Assembly (NCBI RefSeq): GCF_030268965.1
Contig: NZ_BSSE01000005.1
Location: 248,001 to 312,000, forward strand
Direction of reading: 5' to 3'
Length of the DNA stretch: 64,000 bases
From: Microtetraspora sp. NBRC 16547
GTDB lineage: Bacteria; Actinomycetota; Actinomycetes; Streptosporangiales; Streptosporangiaceae
Shown here piece by piece: positions 1-4,800 of this stretch (the first letter of the stretch is position 1; each line of letters opens with the position of its first letter). Position numbers and translations under genes: made by a program. The notes beneath the pieces are model-generated. The model was not told where the DNA came from, ran no database searches, and worked only from the letters and a program-made list of their open reading frames with translations.

Positions 1-544
1 GGGCGTACATGGTGGTCGGGCCGACGAAGGCGAATCCGCGTCGGCGCAGCTCCTTTGACAATGCGACCGACTCGGCGGACTTCGTGGGGATCTCTGCGAA
101 GGTCTGGGGGCAGGGCGTGCTCTCGGGTCGGAAGGACCACACCAGCTCGGCCAGGCCCATCTCCTCACGCAGCATGATGGTGGCGCGGGCATTGGTGATG
201 GTCGCCTGGATCTTCTGCCGGTTGCGCACGATGCCGACGTCGGCCATCAACCGCTCGACATCGGTCTCGGTGTACGCGGCGATCGCGTCCGGGAGGAAGT
301 TGTCAAACGCCGCACGGAATGCGGGTCGCTTGCGGAGGATCGTTGCCCAGGACAGACCCGCCTGAAATCCTTCGAGACTGACGCGCTCGTAGACGCCGCG
401 TTCGTCCGTGACCGGCATGCCCCACTCTGTGTCGTAGTAGTCGCGCAGCAGAGGGGCGGCGGCTGCCCATGCGGGCCGGGCGAGCCCGTCATCGCCGACG
501 ACGACGCCGGGGTCGGCGGTGATGCTGCTCGCATCCTGTGTCAT
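1..544 (-). CDS. tag: DNA-3-methyladenine glycosylase I, 3' end outside window
   Basis: Removes 3-methyladenine from DNA in base-excision repair. The minus-strand reading frame from an ATG at 544 contains the Tag signatures YDTEWG, LEGFQAGLSW (Glu of the active site) and FVGPTT, colinear with E. coli Tag; the C-terminal end lies beyond base 1. The N-terminal zinc ligands of classical Tag are not visible: the position of the first Cys (ERCGW in E. coli) reads RPAW, and the His of YHDNEWG is Tyr. It starts 4 nt after the alkB stop and is the last visible gene of the repair operon. Identification is confident; zinc-site loss is by-eye alignment. Confidence 0.93.
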   Translation of the reverse strand, partial: MTQDASSITADPGVVVGDDGLARPAWAAAAPLLRDYYDTEWGMPVTDERGVYERVSLEGFQAGLSWATILRKRPAFRAAFDNFLPDAIAAYTETDVERLMADVGIVRNRQKIQATITNARATIMLREEMGLAELVWSFRPESTPCPQTFAEIPTKSAESVALSKELRRRGFAFVGPTTMYA

Positions 545-548
545 TCGA

Positions 549-1220
549 TCACCCGTCAAGCCCTGTCATTCGCATCGTGATGTTGATCCGGCCGCGACTG
601 ATGCCGCATCCCTCGGGGGCAGTGCTCTCGTGCACCTTGGTGACACCGTGGTAGGCCAGTCGGGCGGGTCCGCCGAAGACGAAGAGGTCGCCGGAGGCCA
701 ACAGCACGTCGGTGAACGGTTTGCCGCGGCTTTCCGTGTTGCCGAATCGGAACGTGCAACTGTCGCCGATGGACAGCGATACGACCGGGGCGCGGGAGAT
801 CTCGTCCTTGTCCTGGTGCATTCCCAAGCGGGCCCCCGCGTCGTAGTAGTTCACCAGCGCGGTGTCGGGCGTATAGGAGCGGATCGCGGCTGCGTCGTGG
901 CCGGTGGCCTGGAGGGCATGTCGTCCCAGGCGGATCATCCAGTCAGGGAACGGAAGGACACGGGCGCCGTTCACGTCGGTGGCCTCTCGCGTGTACTTGT
1001 ACGGTTGCCAGTGCCAGCCCAGACATACGGTGCGCACCGACATCTCGTGTCCGCGGACCTTCGCGGCGCGGATGGGGACAGGGCCTTGCACCCACTCGCG
1101 GAACTGATCCACGATCCACTTCTGCTGTTCCCGAGTCAGCCAATCAGGGACCAGGGTGGCGCCCGGGGCGACCTCTCCCCCGTCACGCTCGGGGATCTCT
1201 AGAGTGAACAGCGCTGTCAT
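549..1220 (-). CDS. alkB: AlkB-type alpha-ketoglutarate-dependent DNA dealkylase
   Basis: Oxidatively demethylates 1-methyladenine and 3-methylcytosine using Fe(II), 2-oxoglutarate and oxygen. The 223-aa protein carries the iron triad H135-x-D137 (MHQDKDE) and H191, followed by the 2-oxoglutarate/substrate arginines in RINITMR (211-217). The start at 1220 is chosen because it gives a 4-base ATGA overlap with the gene upstream and removes an Arg-rich, non-homologous extension. It is embedded in the minus-strand operon between an unknown gene and tag, so it is almost certainly co-expressed with the other repair genes. Confidence 0.95.
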   Translation of the reverse strand: MTALFTLEIPERDGGEVAPGATLVPDWLTREQQKWIVDQFREWVQGPVPIRAAKVRGHEMSVRTVCLGWHWQPYKYTREATDVNGARVLPFPDWMIRLGRHALQATGHDAAAIRSYTPDTALVNYYDAGARLGMHQDKDEISRAPVVSLSIGDSCTFRFGNTESRGKPFTDVLLASGDLFVFGGPARLAYHGVTKVHESTAPEGCGISRGRINITMRMTGLDG

Positions 1221-1741
1221 CGCTTGCCCTCCATGTGTGTGAGGTGCACGAGGGAATCGTGCGCAACGAGCCAGGAGGTACCGTCTGCGCTTGCGCCGGC
1301 CAGGCCGTCCAGATTGGTCAGTCCGACGAGTGCGAGAGTGCGCGGGTCGCCGATTCCGGCGGTCGCGAGGGTGCGTGCGGGGCTCCAGGGAGTCGACCAC
1401 AGCAGCCGCCGGGTCATCTGTGCCCAACCGGTTGCCGGCCCGACCATCACCCATAGGTCGGGGTCGGCGGCGGCGAACCGTGACGCGTGACGCAGCCAGG
1501 AGGCCCCGGTCTCGGGCCAGGTGATCGTGTCGAGAGTTCCGCCTCCTGTGCGATCCCAGGCCGATTTGATCAGGCGTGAGGTCGCAAGGGCGTGAGGGGT
1601 GCGGCCGGAGCCGATCACGATATTGCGGGCACGGCGGTCGCGGGCAATTCTGATGACGGTCGCGACCTCGGCATCTGTAGCCGTCAGGTCCGCGTTATAA
1701 CTCGCTGACGTCTTCAGCAAGGGGCTGGTCAGGGCTTCCAT
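1217..1741 (-). CDS. Conserved-looking protein of unknown function in repair operon
   Basis: I do not recognise this 174-aa protein. It has a Rossmann-like or P-loop-free alpha/beta flavour: a hydrophobic strand NIVIGSGRTP near residue 40, a second near LWVMVGPATG (about 95-105), and a C-terminal LVAHDSLVHL segment. No metal-binding cluster, signal peptide or membrane segment is seen. The start at 1741 (MEALTSP) is preferred to an upstream Met; it overlaps the Ada-like gene by 13 bases, and its stop overlaps alkB by 4 bases, so translational coupling supports it as a real gene. Location inside an otherwise complete alkylation-repair operon suggests a role there, which is inference. Confidence 0.75.
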   Translation of the reverse strand: MEALTSPLLKTSASYNADLTATDAEVATVIRIARDRRARNIVIGSGRTPHALATSRLIKSAWDRTGGGTLDTITWPETGASWLRHASRFAAADPDLWVMVGPATGWAQMTRRLLWSTPWSPARTLATAGIGDPRTLALVGLTNLDGLAGASADGTSWLVAHDSLVHLTHMEGKR

Positions 1742-2019
1742 CGTTCGCTGTTCTCTCGGGCGGTCTTCCACGTCTGAAAGCGGTCCTTGCAGCAGGCTCC
1801 GCAGGGGCGGAACTTGGCGGCGACCGCCGTGGCCTCGTCAGCGAAGAAGACCCGGTGCTTCACGTAGCCGCCGCGAGCGATGGCGCGCAGCGCGGCGAGA
1901 CAGTCGAGTCGCCCGTAGATCTTCGAGCCGCGATGGCCGCCCCACAGCCCCTTGACCGCAGACCGATAGGGACGGCCGTCTGCCCCCAGAAGGGTGTACG
2001 TCTTCGTTGCGTCGCTCAT
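1729..2019 (-). CDS. Stand-alone Ada-type zinc-binding domain protein lacking the methyl-acceptor Cys
   Basis: A 96-aa protein resembling only the N-terminal zinc domain of Ada. The match runs KIYGRLDC (33-40), then RVFFADEATAVAA (56-68) and FRPCGACC (70-77). Aligned with Ada (F-x-C-R-P-S-C and RPCKRC), C40, C73 and C76 take zinc-ligand positions, C77 is extra, and the methyl-accepting Cys38 of Ada is Gly36 here. There is no AraC domain and no MGMT domain. It starts on an ATGA overlap with the 2OG oxygenase gene. A binding or sensor partner for damaged DNA or for the sigma factor is conceivable; self-methylation at the usual Cys is not. Function is not established. Confidence 0.8.
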   Translation of the reverse strand: MSDATKTYTLLGADGRPYRSAVKGLWGGHRGSKIYGRLDCLAALRAIARGGYVKHRVFFADEATAVAAKFRPCGACCKDRFQTWKTARENSERWKP

Positions 2020-2756
2020 GCGGCGTCATGGAAGACGAGAGCGAGGGTGTGACGTTCGCCGGACCGGATGGCGGATACGCCGTGCCGAACCGGCGCGGCG
2101 GACCATCCGCGGGCGGACTTGACGGGTCGGTCGCGGGTGGTGAAGAGGTATCCGTGACCGTGCGGCAGCAGCGTGGCCGTGCCCCGAGACTGGGCGCGCG
2201 GGCGCTGTTCCAGCAGCAGGAACTCGCCACCCGTGTGATCCACGCCTGGCTCGTTGAGGTTGATCACGACCTGCAACGGGAACACGAGGTCGCCGTACAG
2301 GTCGCGATGCAGAGCGTTCCAATCCTTCTCGCCGTAGTGGAGCAGGATCGCCGAAGACTTCGTCTGGCCGGCGTCGTGGCACATCTGAAGCCACTCATCA
2401 AGCGAGTCAGGCCACGGTGCGGGCCGGCCGAGCTTGGTCCACCAGTCGCGGGCGATGGGAAGCAGCCGCGGGTACAGCGCCTGCTTGAGCCGCTCGATCG
2501 GTTCCGGATACGGCGCGTTGAAGTATCGGTACTGGCCCTCACCGAAGCGGTGCCTGCCCATGTTGACGGTGCTGCGGAACAGGCCGTCCTGCTGGTACAG
2601 CTCCCTGATCTCCACGGTCTCCTCCGGGGTCAGCAGTTGCGGCAGTAGTGCGCCGCCGTACTCGTTGACCTCTGTGGTGATCGCCTCCCAGTCGCCAGAC
2701 TCGACGCGGCTGTACCACCGATCCGTCTTCCTCCTGGTCGCCTTCGCGATGCTCAT
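2016..2756 (-). CDS. 2OG-Fe(II) oxygenase of the DNA-repair type (PF09859-like)
   Basis: A 246-aa dioxygenase of the family annotated as 2OG oxygenases linked to alkylated-DNA repair (formerly DUF2086). The iron motif H150-x-D152 (LHRDLYGDL), the strand VFPLQVVINL, the segment GGEFLLLEQRPR and a distal RHGVSAIRSGERHTL with H225 are all present. The start at 2756 gives an ATGA overlap with the ogt gene upstream. It is a second, AlkB-unrelated oxidative dealkylase candidate within the same operon. Substrate lesion is unknown; membership in the family is confident. Confidence 0.88.
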   Translation of the reverse strand: MSIAKATRRKTDRWYSRVESGDWEAITTEVNEYGGALLPQLLTPEETVEIRELYQQDGLFRSTVNMGRHRFGEGQYRYFNAPYPEPIERLKQALYPRLLPIARDWWTKLGRPAPWPDSLDEWLQMCHDAGQTKSSAILLHYGEKDWNALHRDLYGDLVFPLQVVINLNEPGVDHTGGEFLLLEQRPRAQSRGTATLLPHGHGYLFTTRDRPVKSARGWSAAPVRHGVSAIRSGERHTLALVFHDAA

Positions 2757-3370
2757 GCTGCGGCCTCCAGGTTCAGCAGCATGGTCTTGGCCTCGAGTCC
2801 GCCGATGTAACCGCCGAGCGTGCCGTCGGTACGCAGCACACGGTGGCACGGGACGACGATCGGCAGCGGGTTGGTCGCACAGGCGGTGCCCACCGCTCGG
2901 ACGGCCTTGGGGTTGCCGACGAGCTCGGCCATGTCTCGGTAGCTGCGGGTCTGGCCGTACCCGATCTCGGGCAGATGCGTCTGCACGAGGCGCCGGAATC
3001 CGCGAGACAGGGACAGGTCCAGCGTCAGGTCGAAGACCTGGCGGTGCTTGGCGAAGTACTCGTCGATCTCGCGAGCCACTACGTCCAGCCGCTTCGGGGC
3101 GCGCAGGATGCGCGGGCTGAGCTTCTGGCCGAGGGCTTCCAGGACTCGATCGTGGTCCTCGCGGGCGTACGCCACGCGGACCAGTCCCTTCGGGGTGGCG
3201 GCGAGCAGCAACTTGCCGACAGGTGAGTCGATGGTGGTGTAGGCGACATCGAGGAGATCGGCTCGCTCTGCCGCCTGCTCCAGACGGCGGTGGAGCCGAC
3301 TGAGAGTGCCGGCGTCCACAGGCGTCGACAGCAGGGCGGTCATGTCGTCATCGTGGCGAATGTCGTTCAT
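2753..3370 (-). CDS. ogt: Methylated-DNA--protein-cysteine methyltransferase (first copy)
   Basis: Suicide repair protein that takes the alkyl group from O6-alkylguanine onto an active-site cysteine. The 205-aa protein has the MGMT core: the helix-turn-helix/arginine-finger area ending GYGQTRSYRDMAELVG (138-152), the NPLP turn and the acceptor motif VPCHRV with C175. The N-terminal about 40 residues are an extra, charged extension. Its ATG overlaps the sigma-factor stop by 4 bases, so it is translationally coupled to it. A second MGMT lies upstream in the same operon and is only distantly similar, so this is not a recent duplication. Confidence 0.95.
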   Translation of the reverse strand: MNDIRHDDDMTALLSTPVDAGTLSRLHRRLEQAAERADLLDVAYTTIDSPVGKLLLAATPKGLVRVAYAREDHDRVLEALGQKLSPRILRAPKRLDVVAREIDEYFAKHRQVFDLTLDLSLSRGFRRLVQTHLPEIGYGQTRSYRDMAELVGNPKAVRAVGTACATNPLPIVVPCHRVLRTDGTLGGYIGGLEAKTMLLNLEAAA

Positions 3371-3864
3371 GATGATGCTCCTCTCGTGATCGCGCCCGGA
3401 TATTTCTTCCTGAGATTCCTGAGCCCGTCTGCGGCGGCTCTTCTGGCCGCGTCAACGGTGCCGCCGAGGATCTCCGCGATCTCGGCGTATGCCAGCCCCG
3501 CCACATAGCGGTAGGCGACAGCCTGGCGTTGTTTGCTCGGGAGCCCTTTCACTACGGCCCACAGGTCAGAGTCCCCAGAGTCTGGGATGTCCCGCCCTGT
3601 CGGTGCTTCCGGTACCTCGTCGACTGGTAGGGGATTCCTTTTCGCGACACGCAGCACGTCGATCGCCTTGCGATGCGCGATCGTCACGAGCCATGCCTCC
3701 ACGTTCGCCGTCTCAGGCAGGTCGGGATAGGCGCGCATGGCGGAGAGGAAGGTCTCCGACCATGCGTCGTCCGCGTCGTGCGGGCCGAGGACGACCCGGC
3801 AGACGCGCAGCACGGTTGCGCCGTGCTGCGCGACTACGTTCTCGAACGGTTGTTTCATGTCCAT
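3367..3864 (-). CDS. ECF-type RNA polymerase sigma factor heading the repair genes
   Basis: A 165-aa sigma factor with only the two ECF domains: sigma-2 (about 8-75, with DADDAWSETFLSAM and VEAWLVTIAHRKAIDVLR) and sigma-4 (about 105-155, LPSKQRQAV followed by a helix-turn-helix with YAEIAEIL). No anti-sigma factor or extra C-terminal domain is adjacent. It lies between two ogt genes and overlaps the downstream one by ATGA. Start may be 3864 or the second Met at 3858, which has GGGATGG closer to ideal spacing. A regulatory role for the alkylation-repair genes in place of Ada is a strong contextual inference, not shown directly. Confidence 0.92.
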   Translation of the reverse strand: MDMKQPFENVVAQHGATVLRVCRVVLGPHDADDAWSETFLSAMRAYPDLPETANVEAWLVTIAHRKAIDVLRVAKRNPLPVDEVPEAPTGRDIPDSGDSDLWAVVKGLPSKQRQAVAYRYVAGLAYAEIAEILGGTVDAARRAAADGLRNLRKKYPGAITRGASS

Positions 3865-3872
3865 CCCATTGA

Positions 3873-3905
3873 AGACATACTTGTCGGTGACAAACGTGAG
3901 TTTTC
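3873..3905 (-). promoter_or_regulatory. Candidate ECF promoter before the sigma gene
   Basis: Reading the minus strand, GAAAACTCACGTT (3905-3893) is followed after 14 bases by ATGTCT (3878-3873), just before the sigma-factor start. The same upstream element with one change and a similar downstream hexamer occurs before the first ogt gene. The layout resembles -35 and -10 elements and would give a very short leader. Autoregulation by the encoded sigma factor is inferred. Confidence 0.55.
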
Positions 3906-3908
3906 CGG

Positions 3909-4421
3909 TCAGAACAACCGTCCAGCGCTGACCGCAGGCGGCTCTTCAAGCTCCAGCAGCGCCTGCTTGCGCTCCAGTCCGCCGGCGTATCCGGTGAGGG
4001 AACCATTGGAGCCGACGACGCGGTGGCACGGCACGAAGATGCACAGCGGGTTCGTACCCACGGCCTGTCCGACCTGTTGCGCGAGACTGCGGTCTCTGAC
4101 CTGCTCGGCGATCCGACCGTAGGTGGTCGTGTCACCGCACTGAATGCTCTTCACGATGTCCCAGACGGCGTGCTGGAACGCGTCACCCTCGGCGGCGAGC
4201 GGAAGATCGAATTGCCTGCGTCGACCCGCCAGGTACTGGCGCAGCTGTCGGGCAGCTTCGTTCAGCAACGGGTCCGTGGAGTCGGCCACCTCGGGGCCGA
4301 ACGTCTCCTGCGAGGGCCGGCGGACGTGGTGCCTGAAGTACAGGCCGGCAATCGTCTCGCCCTTTGCAACGAGCGTGATCGGTCCAAGGCGGGTCTCGAT
4401 CACGATGTGTCGAGTGCTCAT
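3909..4421 (-). CDS. ogt: Methylated-DNA--protein-cysteine methyltransferase (second copy)
   Basis: A 170-aa MGMT of normal length with the acceptor motif VPCHRV (C132) and the preceding helix YGRIAEQV. It begins at ATG 4421 behind a good Shine-Dalgarno stretch GGGAGAAGGG; longer versions of the frame read into non-coding upstream DNA. It is the promoter-proximal gene of the repair operon, 44 bases ahead of the ECF sigma gene. Ogt repairs O6-methylguanine stoichiometrically, so having two copies in one operon implies a need for high capacity or for different adduct sizes, which is inference. Confidence 0.95.
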   Translation of the reverse strand: MSTRHIVIETRLGPITLVAKGETIAGLYFRHHVRRPSQETFGPEVADSTDPLLNEAARQLRQYLAGRRRQFDLPLAAEGDAFQHAVWDIVKSIQCGDTTTYGRIAEQVRDRSLAQQVGQAVGTNPLCIFVPCHRVVGSNGSLTGYAGGLERKQALLELEEPPAVSAGRLF

Positions 4422-4446
4422 CTGCGTTTCCCTTCTCCCGGCTGGT

Positions 4447-4478
4447 AGACGTGCGCCGCTCGCAGAACGTGAGATTTC
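4447..4478 (-). promoter_or_regulatory. Candidate ECF promoter before the repair operon
   Basis: On the minus strand GAAATCTCACGTT (4478-4466) is followed after 13 bases by ACGTCT (4452-4447). The first element matches the one before the sigma gene at 12 of 13 positions. A transcript starting a few bases downstream would have a leader of about 20 bases that includes the ogt ribosome-binding site. Nothing else in the two upstream regions is alike, which argues for function. Confidence 0.6.
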
Positions 4479-4533: not shown

Positions 4534-4577
4534 AAGGTGGGCGCAGGACGCGGGCGGGACCGAGGGAGGAAGCGCCA

Positions 4578-4800
4578 GGATGAGCACCGACGCGGCCCGG
4601 CCGGTCCCTGTCCTGGAGCCTCTCACCCTTGGGCGGTCCCGTCTTCGACGGCACCCTCGCCTGGCTCGACTGCACGATCGAGGCCGAGCACCCGGCCGGG
4701 GACCACGTCATCGTGGTGGCCCGCGTCAACGGGCTCGACAAGCACGAGGACGGCAATCCGCTCGTCTTCTTCCGCGGAGATTACGGACGGTCCACGCATG
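4578..4800 (+). pseudogene. Flavin reductase remnant (internal deletion and frameshift)
   Basis: A start codon at 4578 with GGAGG in front opens a frame reading MSTDAARPVPVLEPLTLG. From about 4620 a different frame encodes the C-terminal half of a flavin-reductase domain: GGPVFDGTLAWLDCTIEA, PAGDHVIVVARV and NPLVFFRGDYG. The central part of the usual protein of about 160-190 residues is missing. The first frame runs on to a TGA that overlaps the acyl-CoA dehydrogenase ATG, so the ancestral arrangement was an operon. Such reductases normally supply reduced flavin to monooxygenases, including steroid hydroxylases. Broken unless a sequencing error is responsible; a simple error cannot explain the missing centre. 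Confidence 0.7.

What the first reader, a model, noticed from the sequence alone, without database searches (positions are those of the whole stretch)
1..4478. Ada-less adaptive response: ECF sigma factor inside an eight-gene alkylation-repair operon
Two MGMTs, an AlkB, a second repair-type 2OG oxygenase, Tag, an Ada-zinc-domain protein and an unknown protein are co-directional and mostly joined by 4-base ATGA overlaps, with an ECF sigma factor as second gene. In described systems this set is controlled by Ada; here no full Ada is present. An ECF-controlled methylation-damage regulon, with a sigma factor lacking a visible anti-sigma partner, would be a new regulatory design.
Basis: partly seen in the sequence, partly recalled or inferred. 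Interest (0 to 1): 0.85.

Follow-up and report, generated by a model that had tools for sequence, protein, structure and literature searches.

The report
Sigma factor paired with DNA-repair enzyme
An actinobacterium carries an eight-gene kit for repairing methylated DNA that appears to be switched on by its own sigma factor, paired with a repair enzyme that may double as the damage sensor; the pairing was already listed in a sigma-factor classification, but how it works has not been shown.

Summary
The operon is real: eight minus-strand genes (ogtA, ECF sigma, ogtB, PF09859 oxygenase, Ada-zinc-like protein, unknown, alkB, tag); tag runs off the window. 'Ada-less' holds only locally: the genome has an Ada-AlkA fusion plus an MGMT elsewhere. 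The sigma belongs to a widespread actinobacterial clade; the MGMT OgtB follows it in 80 of 80 fetched loci and in 51 of 52 sigma hits of a 394-genome draw, the other being at a contig end. A review lists such a group as ECF122, mechanism unknown, so the pairing is not new. Found here: a cross-validated promoter, CTCAC(G/A)TT-N14-CGTCTA, before ogtA, before sigma (variant spacing) and before a SnoaL-like gene outside the window; and an N-terminal extension on OgtB (at least 25 residues in 211 of 213 sigma-partnered OgtBs) whose helix motif is missing in five of seven OgtBs from sigma-less genomes. Best reading: OgtB is the sigma's cognate regulator, probably an anti-sigma released when its repair cysteine is methylated. 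Operon, pairing and promoter rest on sequence; the switch and its sign are inferred. Coevolution was inconclusive. Experiments are needed.

The parts
4446..4473 (-). Predicted sigma-dependent promoter of ogtA: CTCACGTT-N14-CGTCTA (runs 4473 to 4446)
   Evidence: only site at >=10 bits in the 64-kb window; also found by strict genome patterns
3909..4421 (-). ogtA: methylated-DNA-protein cysteine methyltransferase without N-terminal extension
   Evidence: PF01035 6.6e-32, PF02870 1.1e-08
3871..3900 (-). Predicted sigma-dependent promoter of sigma, CTCACGTT-N16-GTCTTC, spacer one base longer than consensus; start of the motif 36 bases before the sigma start codon
   Evidence: below the 10-bit threshold of the fixed-spacing matrix
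3367..3864 (-). ECF sigma factor, 165 aa, sigma2 + sigma4 only
   Evidence: relatives
2753..3370 (-). ogtB: MGMT with about 40-aa N-terminal extension; PCHR cysteine Cys175; proposed cognate regulator of sigma
2016..2756 (-). 2OG-Fe(II) oxygenase, PF09859 (Oxygenase-NA)
   Evidence: 7.3e-77
1729..2019 (-). Stand-alone Ada zinc-domain-like protein lacking the Cys38 methyl acceptor
1217..1741 (-). Unknown protein; predicted fold resembles one lobe of a type-1 periplasmic-binding protein
   Evidence: AlphaFold pLDDT 90.5, Foldseek best E 4.2e-05 at 11% identity
549..1220 (-). AlkB-type 2OG dioxygenase
   Evidence: PF13532 6.9e-50
1..544 (-). tag: 3-methyladenine DNA glycosylase I; C-terminus lies outside the window
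   Evidence: PF03352 1.7e-57; end seen in L008

Best explanation
The operon is an auto-regulated alkylation-repair regulon driven by its own ECF sigma, whose cognate regulator is the MGMT encoded right after it (OgtB). Most likely OgtB is a cytosolic anti-sigma: unmethylated, it holds sigma through its N-terminal extension; when its PCHR cysteine takes a methyl group from damaged DNA, which is irreversible, sigma is released and transcribes ogtA-sigma-ogtB-repair genes and the SnoaL-like gene from CTCAC(G/A)TT-N14-CGTCTA promoters. Newly made unmethylated OgtB shuts the response off when lesions are gone. Well supported by sequence: the operon, the near-obligate pair, the promoter motif, the extension of partnered OgtB. 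Inferred: sigma-OgtB binding, methylation as the signal, the negative sign.
For: OgtB directly downstream in 80 of 80 loci, in 51 of 52 sigma hits of a 394-genome draw with the 52nd at a contig end, and in 269 of 273 sigma hits in all held loci; of the other 4, three are at contig ends and the fourth (G680, a MAG) has an OgtB with the extension on another contig, and there both genes carry the motif upstream (20.1 and 23.7 bits). Other window genes are less constant: ogtA 49, oxyNA 40, alkB 28, adaZn 27, tag 22, unk 19 of 80; no family outside the window's own recurs in more than 9 of 67 loci. Cross-validated motif: 39 of 40 and 38 of 40 held-out loci versus 12 of 660 and 9 of 770 control windows. 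Strict pattern in 14 of 44 sigma-bearing and 0 of 36 sigma-lacking genomes, 11 of 15 sites at the sigma operon. Extension of 25 aa or more in 211 of 213 distinct OgtBs beside core sigmas; the best-scoring solved MGMTs match only from position 39-43 on. Seven OgtBs from genomes without a sigma hit fall inside the partnered clade (fork 99/96); one keeps the helix motif, one in part, five do not. PCHR intact in 80 of 80. Precedent: methylation of the PCHR cysteine activates the Caulobacter regulator Cada2 (PMC10957082, sections 8-10 read).
Against: Coupling analysis of 226 pairs gave no clear sigma-OgtB signal (best inter-protein z 6.7 against 10.3 and 11.0 within the proteins; extension columns 19 of the top 100 inter-protein pairs versus 12.7 expected). 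No complex could be modelled. No anti-sigma domain matches OgtB. The orphan set is small, its inner forks are mostly unresolved and two members have long branches. Eight weaker second-clade sigmas also have an adjacent MGMT, with other extensions and no motif nearby. The reversed control of the strict pattern matched 4 of 44 and 2 of 36 genomes. No expression data.
Confidence: 0.5

Rival explanations
1. OgtB is a positive partner: only methylated OgtB helps the sigma or its RNA polymerase start transcription, by analogy with Cada2.
For: Cada2 is activated by PCHR methylation and showed a two-hybrid signal with RNA polymerase subunit A under damage; OgtB also carries an RLH-type motif.
Against: OgtB has no helix-turn-helix match and its extension is short; sigma first, partner second with a 4-base overlap is the usual layout of sigma/anti-sigma pairs (recalled, not from a call).
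Confidence: 0.22
2. OgtB is only the most conserved target; the sigma is controlled through its own transcription by another damage regulator, or is weakly active all the time.
For: Repair genes are natural targets, and OgtB keeps its catalytic motif in 80 of 80 loci.
Against: Does not explain an extension that goes with the sigma, nor why OgtB is near-obligate while ogtA is not (49 of 80); the motif lies before ogtA and before sigma in the window, so the sigma probably drives itself.
Confidence: 0.2
3. The operon is ultimately controlled by the genome's Ada-AlkA protein, with the sigma as an amplifier.
For: A full Ada-AlkA exists in this genome; 29 of 44 core sigma-bearing genomes have a full Ada zinc domain.
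Against: 15 of 44 do not (14 no match, one weak match; some are incomplete drafts). In the 36 sigma-lacking genomes 23 had a match, so there is no strong association. No Ada box was searched for.
Confidence: 0.06

Closest known systems
ECF122 sigma factor group
   Same: ECF sigma without a classical anti-sigma, with 6-O-methylguanine DNA methyltransferase in the conserved neighbourhood, suggested there as possibly regulatory (PMC8999054, passages read)
   Different: Mechanism listed as unknown; the original classification paper (Casas-Pastor 2021) is not held, so membership by its own model and any promoter it reports could not be checked
Cada2-type adaptive response (Caulobacter)
   Same: MGMT domain whose PCHR cysteine is (there shown, here proposed) the methylation switch of a repair regulon
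   Different: Cada2 itself binds DNA through B-box and RLHD domains; OgtB has no helix-turn-helix match and is paired with a sigma
Ada / AdaA adaptive response
   Same: Similar repair genes under one autoregulated control
   Different: No full Ada in the operon; the small zinc protein lacks the Cys38 acceptor and any HTH; the promoter looks ECF-type
Sigma with soluble anti-sigma, such as SigR-RsrA (recalled; only the start of an abstract seen)
   Same: Cytosolic sensing by a partner that holds the sigma, proposed here
   Different: The partner would be a repair enzyme without a known anti-sigma domain

Membership tests
ECF122 | ECF sigma with sigma2 and sigma4, no extra domain | tested here: met
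   165 aa
ECF122 | MGMT in the conserved neighbourhood | tested here: met
   80 of 80 loci; 51 of 52 hits
ECF122 | No classical anti-sigma neighbour | tested here: met
   no further family in more than 9 of 67 loci; judged by recurrence of ORF clusters, not by an anti-sigma model
ECF122 | Match to the group's own profile or to its reference WP_057211282.1 | not testable with these tools
   classification paper not held; reference sequence not fetched
Ada methylphosphotriester sensor (small zinc protein) | Cys38 acceptor among four zinc cysteines | tested here: not met
   that position is Gly in 17 of 17 rows; the other three cysteines are invariant
Cada2-like regulator (OgtB) | MGMT domain with PCHR | tested here: met
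Cada2-like regulator (OgtB) | B-box helix-turn-helix domain | tested here: not met
   no HTH match in Pfam
Cada2-like regulator (OgtB) | RLHD motif | tested here: inconclusive
   [RAGK]LH..L in 115 of 213 extensions; BLASTP aligns SRLH with SRLHD of the S. meliloti protein but with an 8-residue gap next to it, and MAFFT does not align them
Anti-sigma domain protein (OgtB) | Recognisable anti-sigma domain | tested here: not met
   only MGMT/Ada-type models match

The most novel reading that the evidence does not exclude
A suicide DNA-repair enzyme doubles as an anti-sigma factor: one irreversible methyl transfer to its catalytic cysteine both removes the lesion and frees a sigma factor, so that each repair event is counted directly as transcription; a third kind of adaptive response beside Ada and Cada2, spread through Actinomycetota.
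Probability: 0.42. Interest if true: 0.87.

Novelty: new member of a known kind. Interest (0 to 1): 0.6.

Why it matters
If OgtB is the sensor, it would explain how the ECF122 group is regulated, give actinobacteria a second inducible defence against DNA methylation beside Ada (and perhaps the main one in the 15 of 44 sigma-bearing genomes without a full Ada zinc domain), and show a repair enzyme acting as a sigma regulator. The promoter motif and the N-terminal extension turn this into a short list of direct tests.

Tried and rejected
Chance clustering or an unrelated sigma: rejected by the near-obligate pair and the motif. Small Ada-zinc protein as methyl sensor: rejected, no Cys38 and near the sigma in only 27 of 80 loci. 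Unknown protein as anti-sigma: rejected, in 19 of 80 loci. Natural sigma-OgtB fusion: none in L010-L089 or L094-L173. Mean-field coupling analysis: inconclusive, not used as support. OgtB as a Cada2 derivative: the RLH motif is suggestive but unproven.

Limits and slips. One search used spacer N15 by my counting error; it matched 5 of 44 sigma-bearing and 1 of 36 sigma-lacking genomes, with no site at the operon, and serves as a spacing control. In one search the reversed control matched 6 times (4 of 44 and 2 of 36 genomes), so the 4 off-operon strict sites are at chance level in number; one of them lies 34 nt before a PF09859 gene, which is only suggestive. In the window's own genome a looser pattern gave 4 sites, 2 of them the operon promoters, and its reversed control also 4. 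A simple pattern CTCAC-N17-19-GTC occurs within 400 bases upstream of sigma in 52 of 80 loci; many of the others have it before ogtA. The matrix was built from all loci, so that count is not cross-validated; 25 of its 128 sites were not assigned to a window family, and the 19 labelled ogtB are best BLAST hits within 140 nt not checked one by one. Of 44 sigma-lacking control genomes drawn, 36 were searched. In one search, 66 of the OgtB-like rows were used (the weakest rows left out). Structure of sigma was not predicted.
Full report
WHAT IS THERE. By reading, four of seven junctions are ATGA overlaps. Tag runs past the window start. A SnoaL-like gene (PF07366; C5:247252-247698) follows, with a copy of the motif starting at C5:247783 (23.9 bits). 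All eight genes occur near the sigma in 10 of 80 related loci, 7 in the window's order.

ADA. The genome holds a full Ada zinc domain, AraC HTH and AlkA in one protein on contig C1, followed by an MGMT, so 'Ada-less' describes the operon, not the organism. Of 44 core sigma-bearing genomes, 29 have a full Ada zinc domain, one only a weak match and 14 none; of 36 sigma-lacking genomes 23 have a match. The operon's zinc protein keeps three Ada cysteines and an invariant His29, but an invariant Gly stands at the Cys38 position in 17 of 17 rows. That methylation of Cys38 activates E. coli Ada is stated in PMC10957082.

THE SIGMA CLADE AND ITS PARTNER. The search for related loci found 395 relatives and kept the best 80, so these are the nearest ones; one is titled Candidatus Melainabacteria (L067), the others actinobacteria. 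In all 80 OgtB follows the sigma. A class-wide draw of 394 genomes gave 52 with a sigma at E<=1e-30 (44 core, 8 weaker); 51 have an OgtB-like hit directly downstream, the other is at a contig end. Three further draws found the core sigma (E<=1e-50) in 50 of 318, 69 of 317 and 7 of 35 genomes, partly the same genomes. Over all held loci, repeats included, 269 of 273 sigma hits are paired. Three of the others are at contig ends. The fourth, G680 (a MAG of about 450 contigs), has its sigma on contig C298 followed by unrelated sequence and an OgtB with the extension on contig C1; no sigma lies next to that OgtB, and both genes have the motif upstream, 20.1 and 23.7 bits, the latter starting 83 nt before OgtB. 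The sigma stop and OgtB start overlap by 4 bases in 192 of 222 distinct pairs. A Tsukamurella plasmid is annotated MGMT-sigma-MGMT-2OG oxygenase-AlkB. Outside the window's own families no neighbour cluster recurs in more than 9 of 67 loci.

PROMOTER. A dyad search in 81 upstream regions gave CTCAC-N18-GTCT in 49, against 2 of 400 control windows. A weight matrix trained on half of the loci found a site within 750 bases upstream of the sigma (one-per-100-kb threshold from reversed sequence) in 39 of 40 and 38 of 40 held-out loci, against 12 of 660 and 9 of 770 control windows; close relatives occur in both halves, so the halves are not fully independent. With a matrix from all loci, 128 sites at 10 bits against 3 in reversed sequence; 46 precede an ogtA-like ORF and 36 a sigma ORF, and in 30 of these 36 the motif starts 32-35 nt before the start codon, which suggests leaderless transcripts (inference). 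In the 64-kb window the only such site is before ogtA; the site before sigma has one extra spacer base. A strict pattern occurs in 14 of 44 sigma-bearing and 0 of 36 sigma-lacking genomes, 11 of 15 sites at the operon; the reversed control matched 6 times, so off-operon sites are not significant in number. Near-full-length SnoaL relatives lie in 5 of 80 loci and 4 of these 5 have the motif within 300 bases upstream. In L035 and L040 sites lie 178 and 157 nt before an alkB-like ORF, suggestive only.

OGTB. It resembles solved MGMTs in sequence, from position 39-43 on in the best rows (two engineered chimeras align from 10 and 26), and in fold (Ada C-domain 1sfe, M. tuberculosis OGT). Its first 40 residues are extra. 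AlphaFold puts helices at 8-15 (low confidence, blocks 45-62) and 20-36 (blocks of about 80) on a confident core (mean pLDDT 90.3 for the best model; the five models range from 76 to 90). The extension is at least 25 aa in 211 of 213 distinct OgtBs beside core sigmas, and 187 of 213 contain L[HR]..[LV]. In a tree of MGMT cores, seven OgtBs with no adjacent sigma, from genomes with no sigma hit, fall inside the partnered clade (99/96; L154, L155, one MGMT of L156, L157, L158, L159, L161). L154 keeps the helix motif, L156 in part, the other five do not. None of these loci has the motif within 400 bases upstream; in L156 a decayed copy (CTCGC for CTCAC) is visible by eye. Inner forks are mostly unresolved and L159 and L161 have long branches. 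PCHR is intact in 80 of 80.

MECHANISM. The near-obligate partner, an extension that goes with the sigma (kept even where the two genes are unlinked, mostly lost where the sigma is absent), an intact acceptor cysteine, and the Cada2 precedent (PMC10957082 sections 8-10) make OgtB the likely regulator, and anti-sigma the likelier sign. Binding has not been shown; coupling analysis with 226 pairs (effective number 153) was inconclusive.

KNOWN OR NEW. PMC8999054 (passages read) lists ECF122 as a sigma group with MGMT neighbours and unknown mechanism; it was the only paper found for 'ECF122'. Eight further searches on ECF or anti-sigma with alkylation or methylguanine terms showed no title or abstract start describing the mechanism; some searches listed only 25 of 399, 15 of 71 and 15 of 227 papers, and most subscription papers are not in the library. 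The classification paper itself was not held and may report a promoter for this group. Passages only were read in PMC8103513, PMC4437013 and PMC7406223.

ORIGIN. Operon GC is 66.2% against 70.6% in the rest of the window (rank 6 of 120 overlapping windows) and GC3 0.75-0.85 against 0.95 in two flanking genes. The sigma tree mixes families (Sinosporangium siamense with a Streptomyces, fork 100/92), and 20 listed genomes of the window's own family lack the sigma while one other has it. Horizontal transfer is likely.

Noticed in passing
L008:11252-11698 (outside the window, C5:247252-247698): SnoaL-like gene with its own copy of the motif; near-full-length relatives in 5 of 80 loci, 4 with the motif (L014, L021, L025, L035). 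An unexplained candidate member of an alkylation regulon.
   Followed up: partly
L313 and L230 (G680): Sigma and OgtB on different contigs of one draft genome, each with the motif upstream and OgtB keeping its extension.
   Followed up: partly
L164-L171: A second, weaker clade of ECF sigmas also followed by an MGMT, with different extensions and no motif nearby.
   Followed up: partly
window 1217-1741: Unknown protein predicted as a single lobe of a type-1 periplasmic-binding-protein fold.
   Followed up: partly
L311 (Tsukamurella tyrosinosolvens plasmid NZ_LR134464.1): The sigma-MGMT repair operon on a plasmid.
   Followed up: no
L284 and L299 (G934), L282 and L287 (G928): Two sigma hits of this clade in one genome; in G928 they lie on separate short contigs.
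   Followed up: no
L163 (G306): The sigma matches in two overlapping frames, as if frameshifted; not looked into.
   Followed up: no
window about 4560-4800: By eye, a fragment resembling a flavin-reductase C-terminus next to the operon, perhaps a broken gene at an insertion edge.
   Followed up: no
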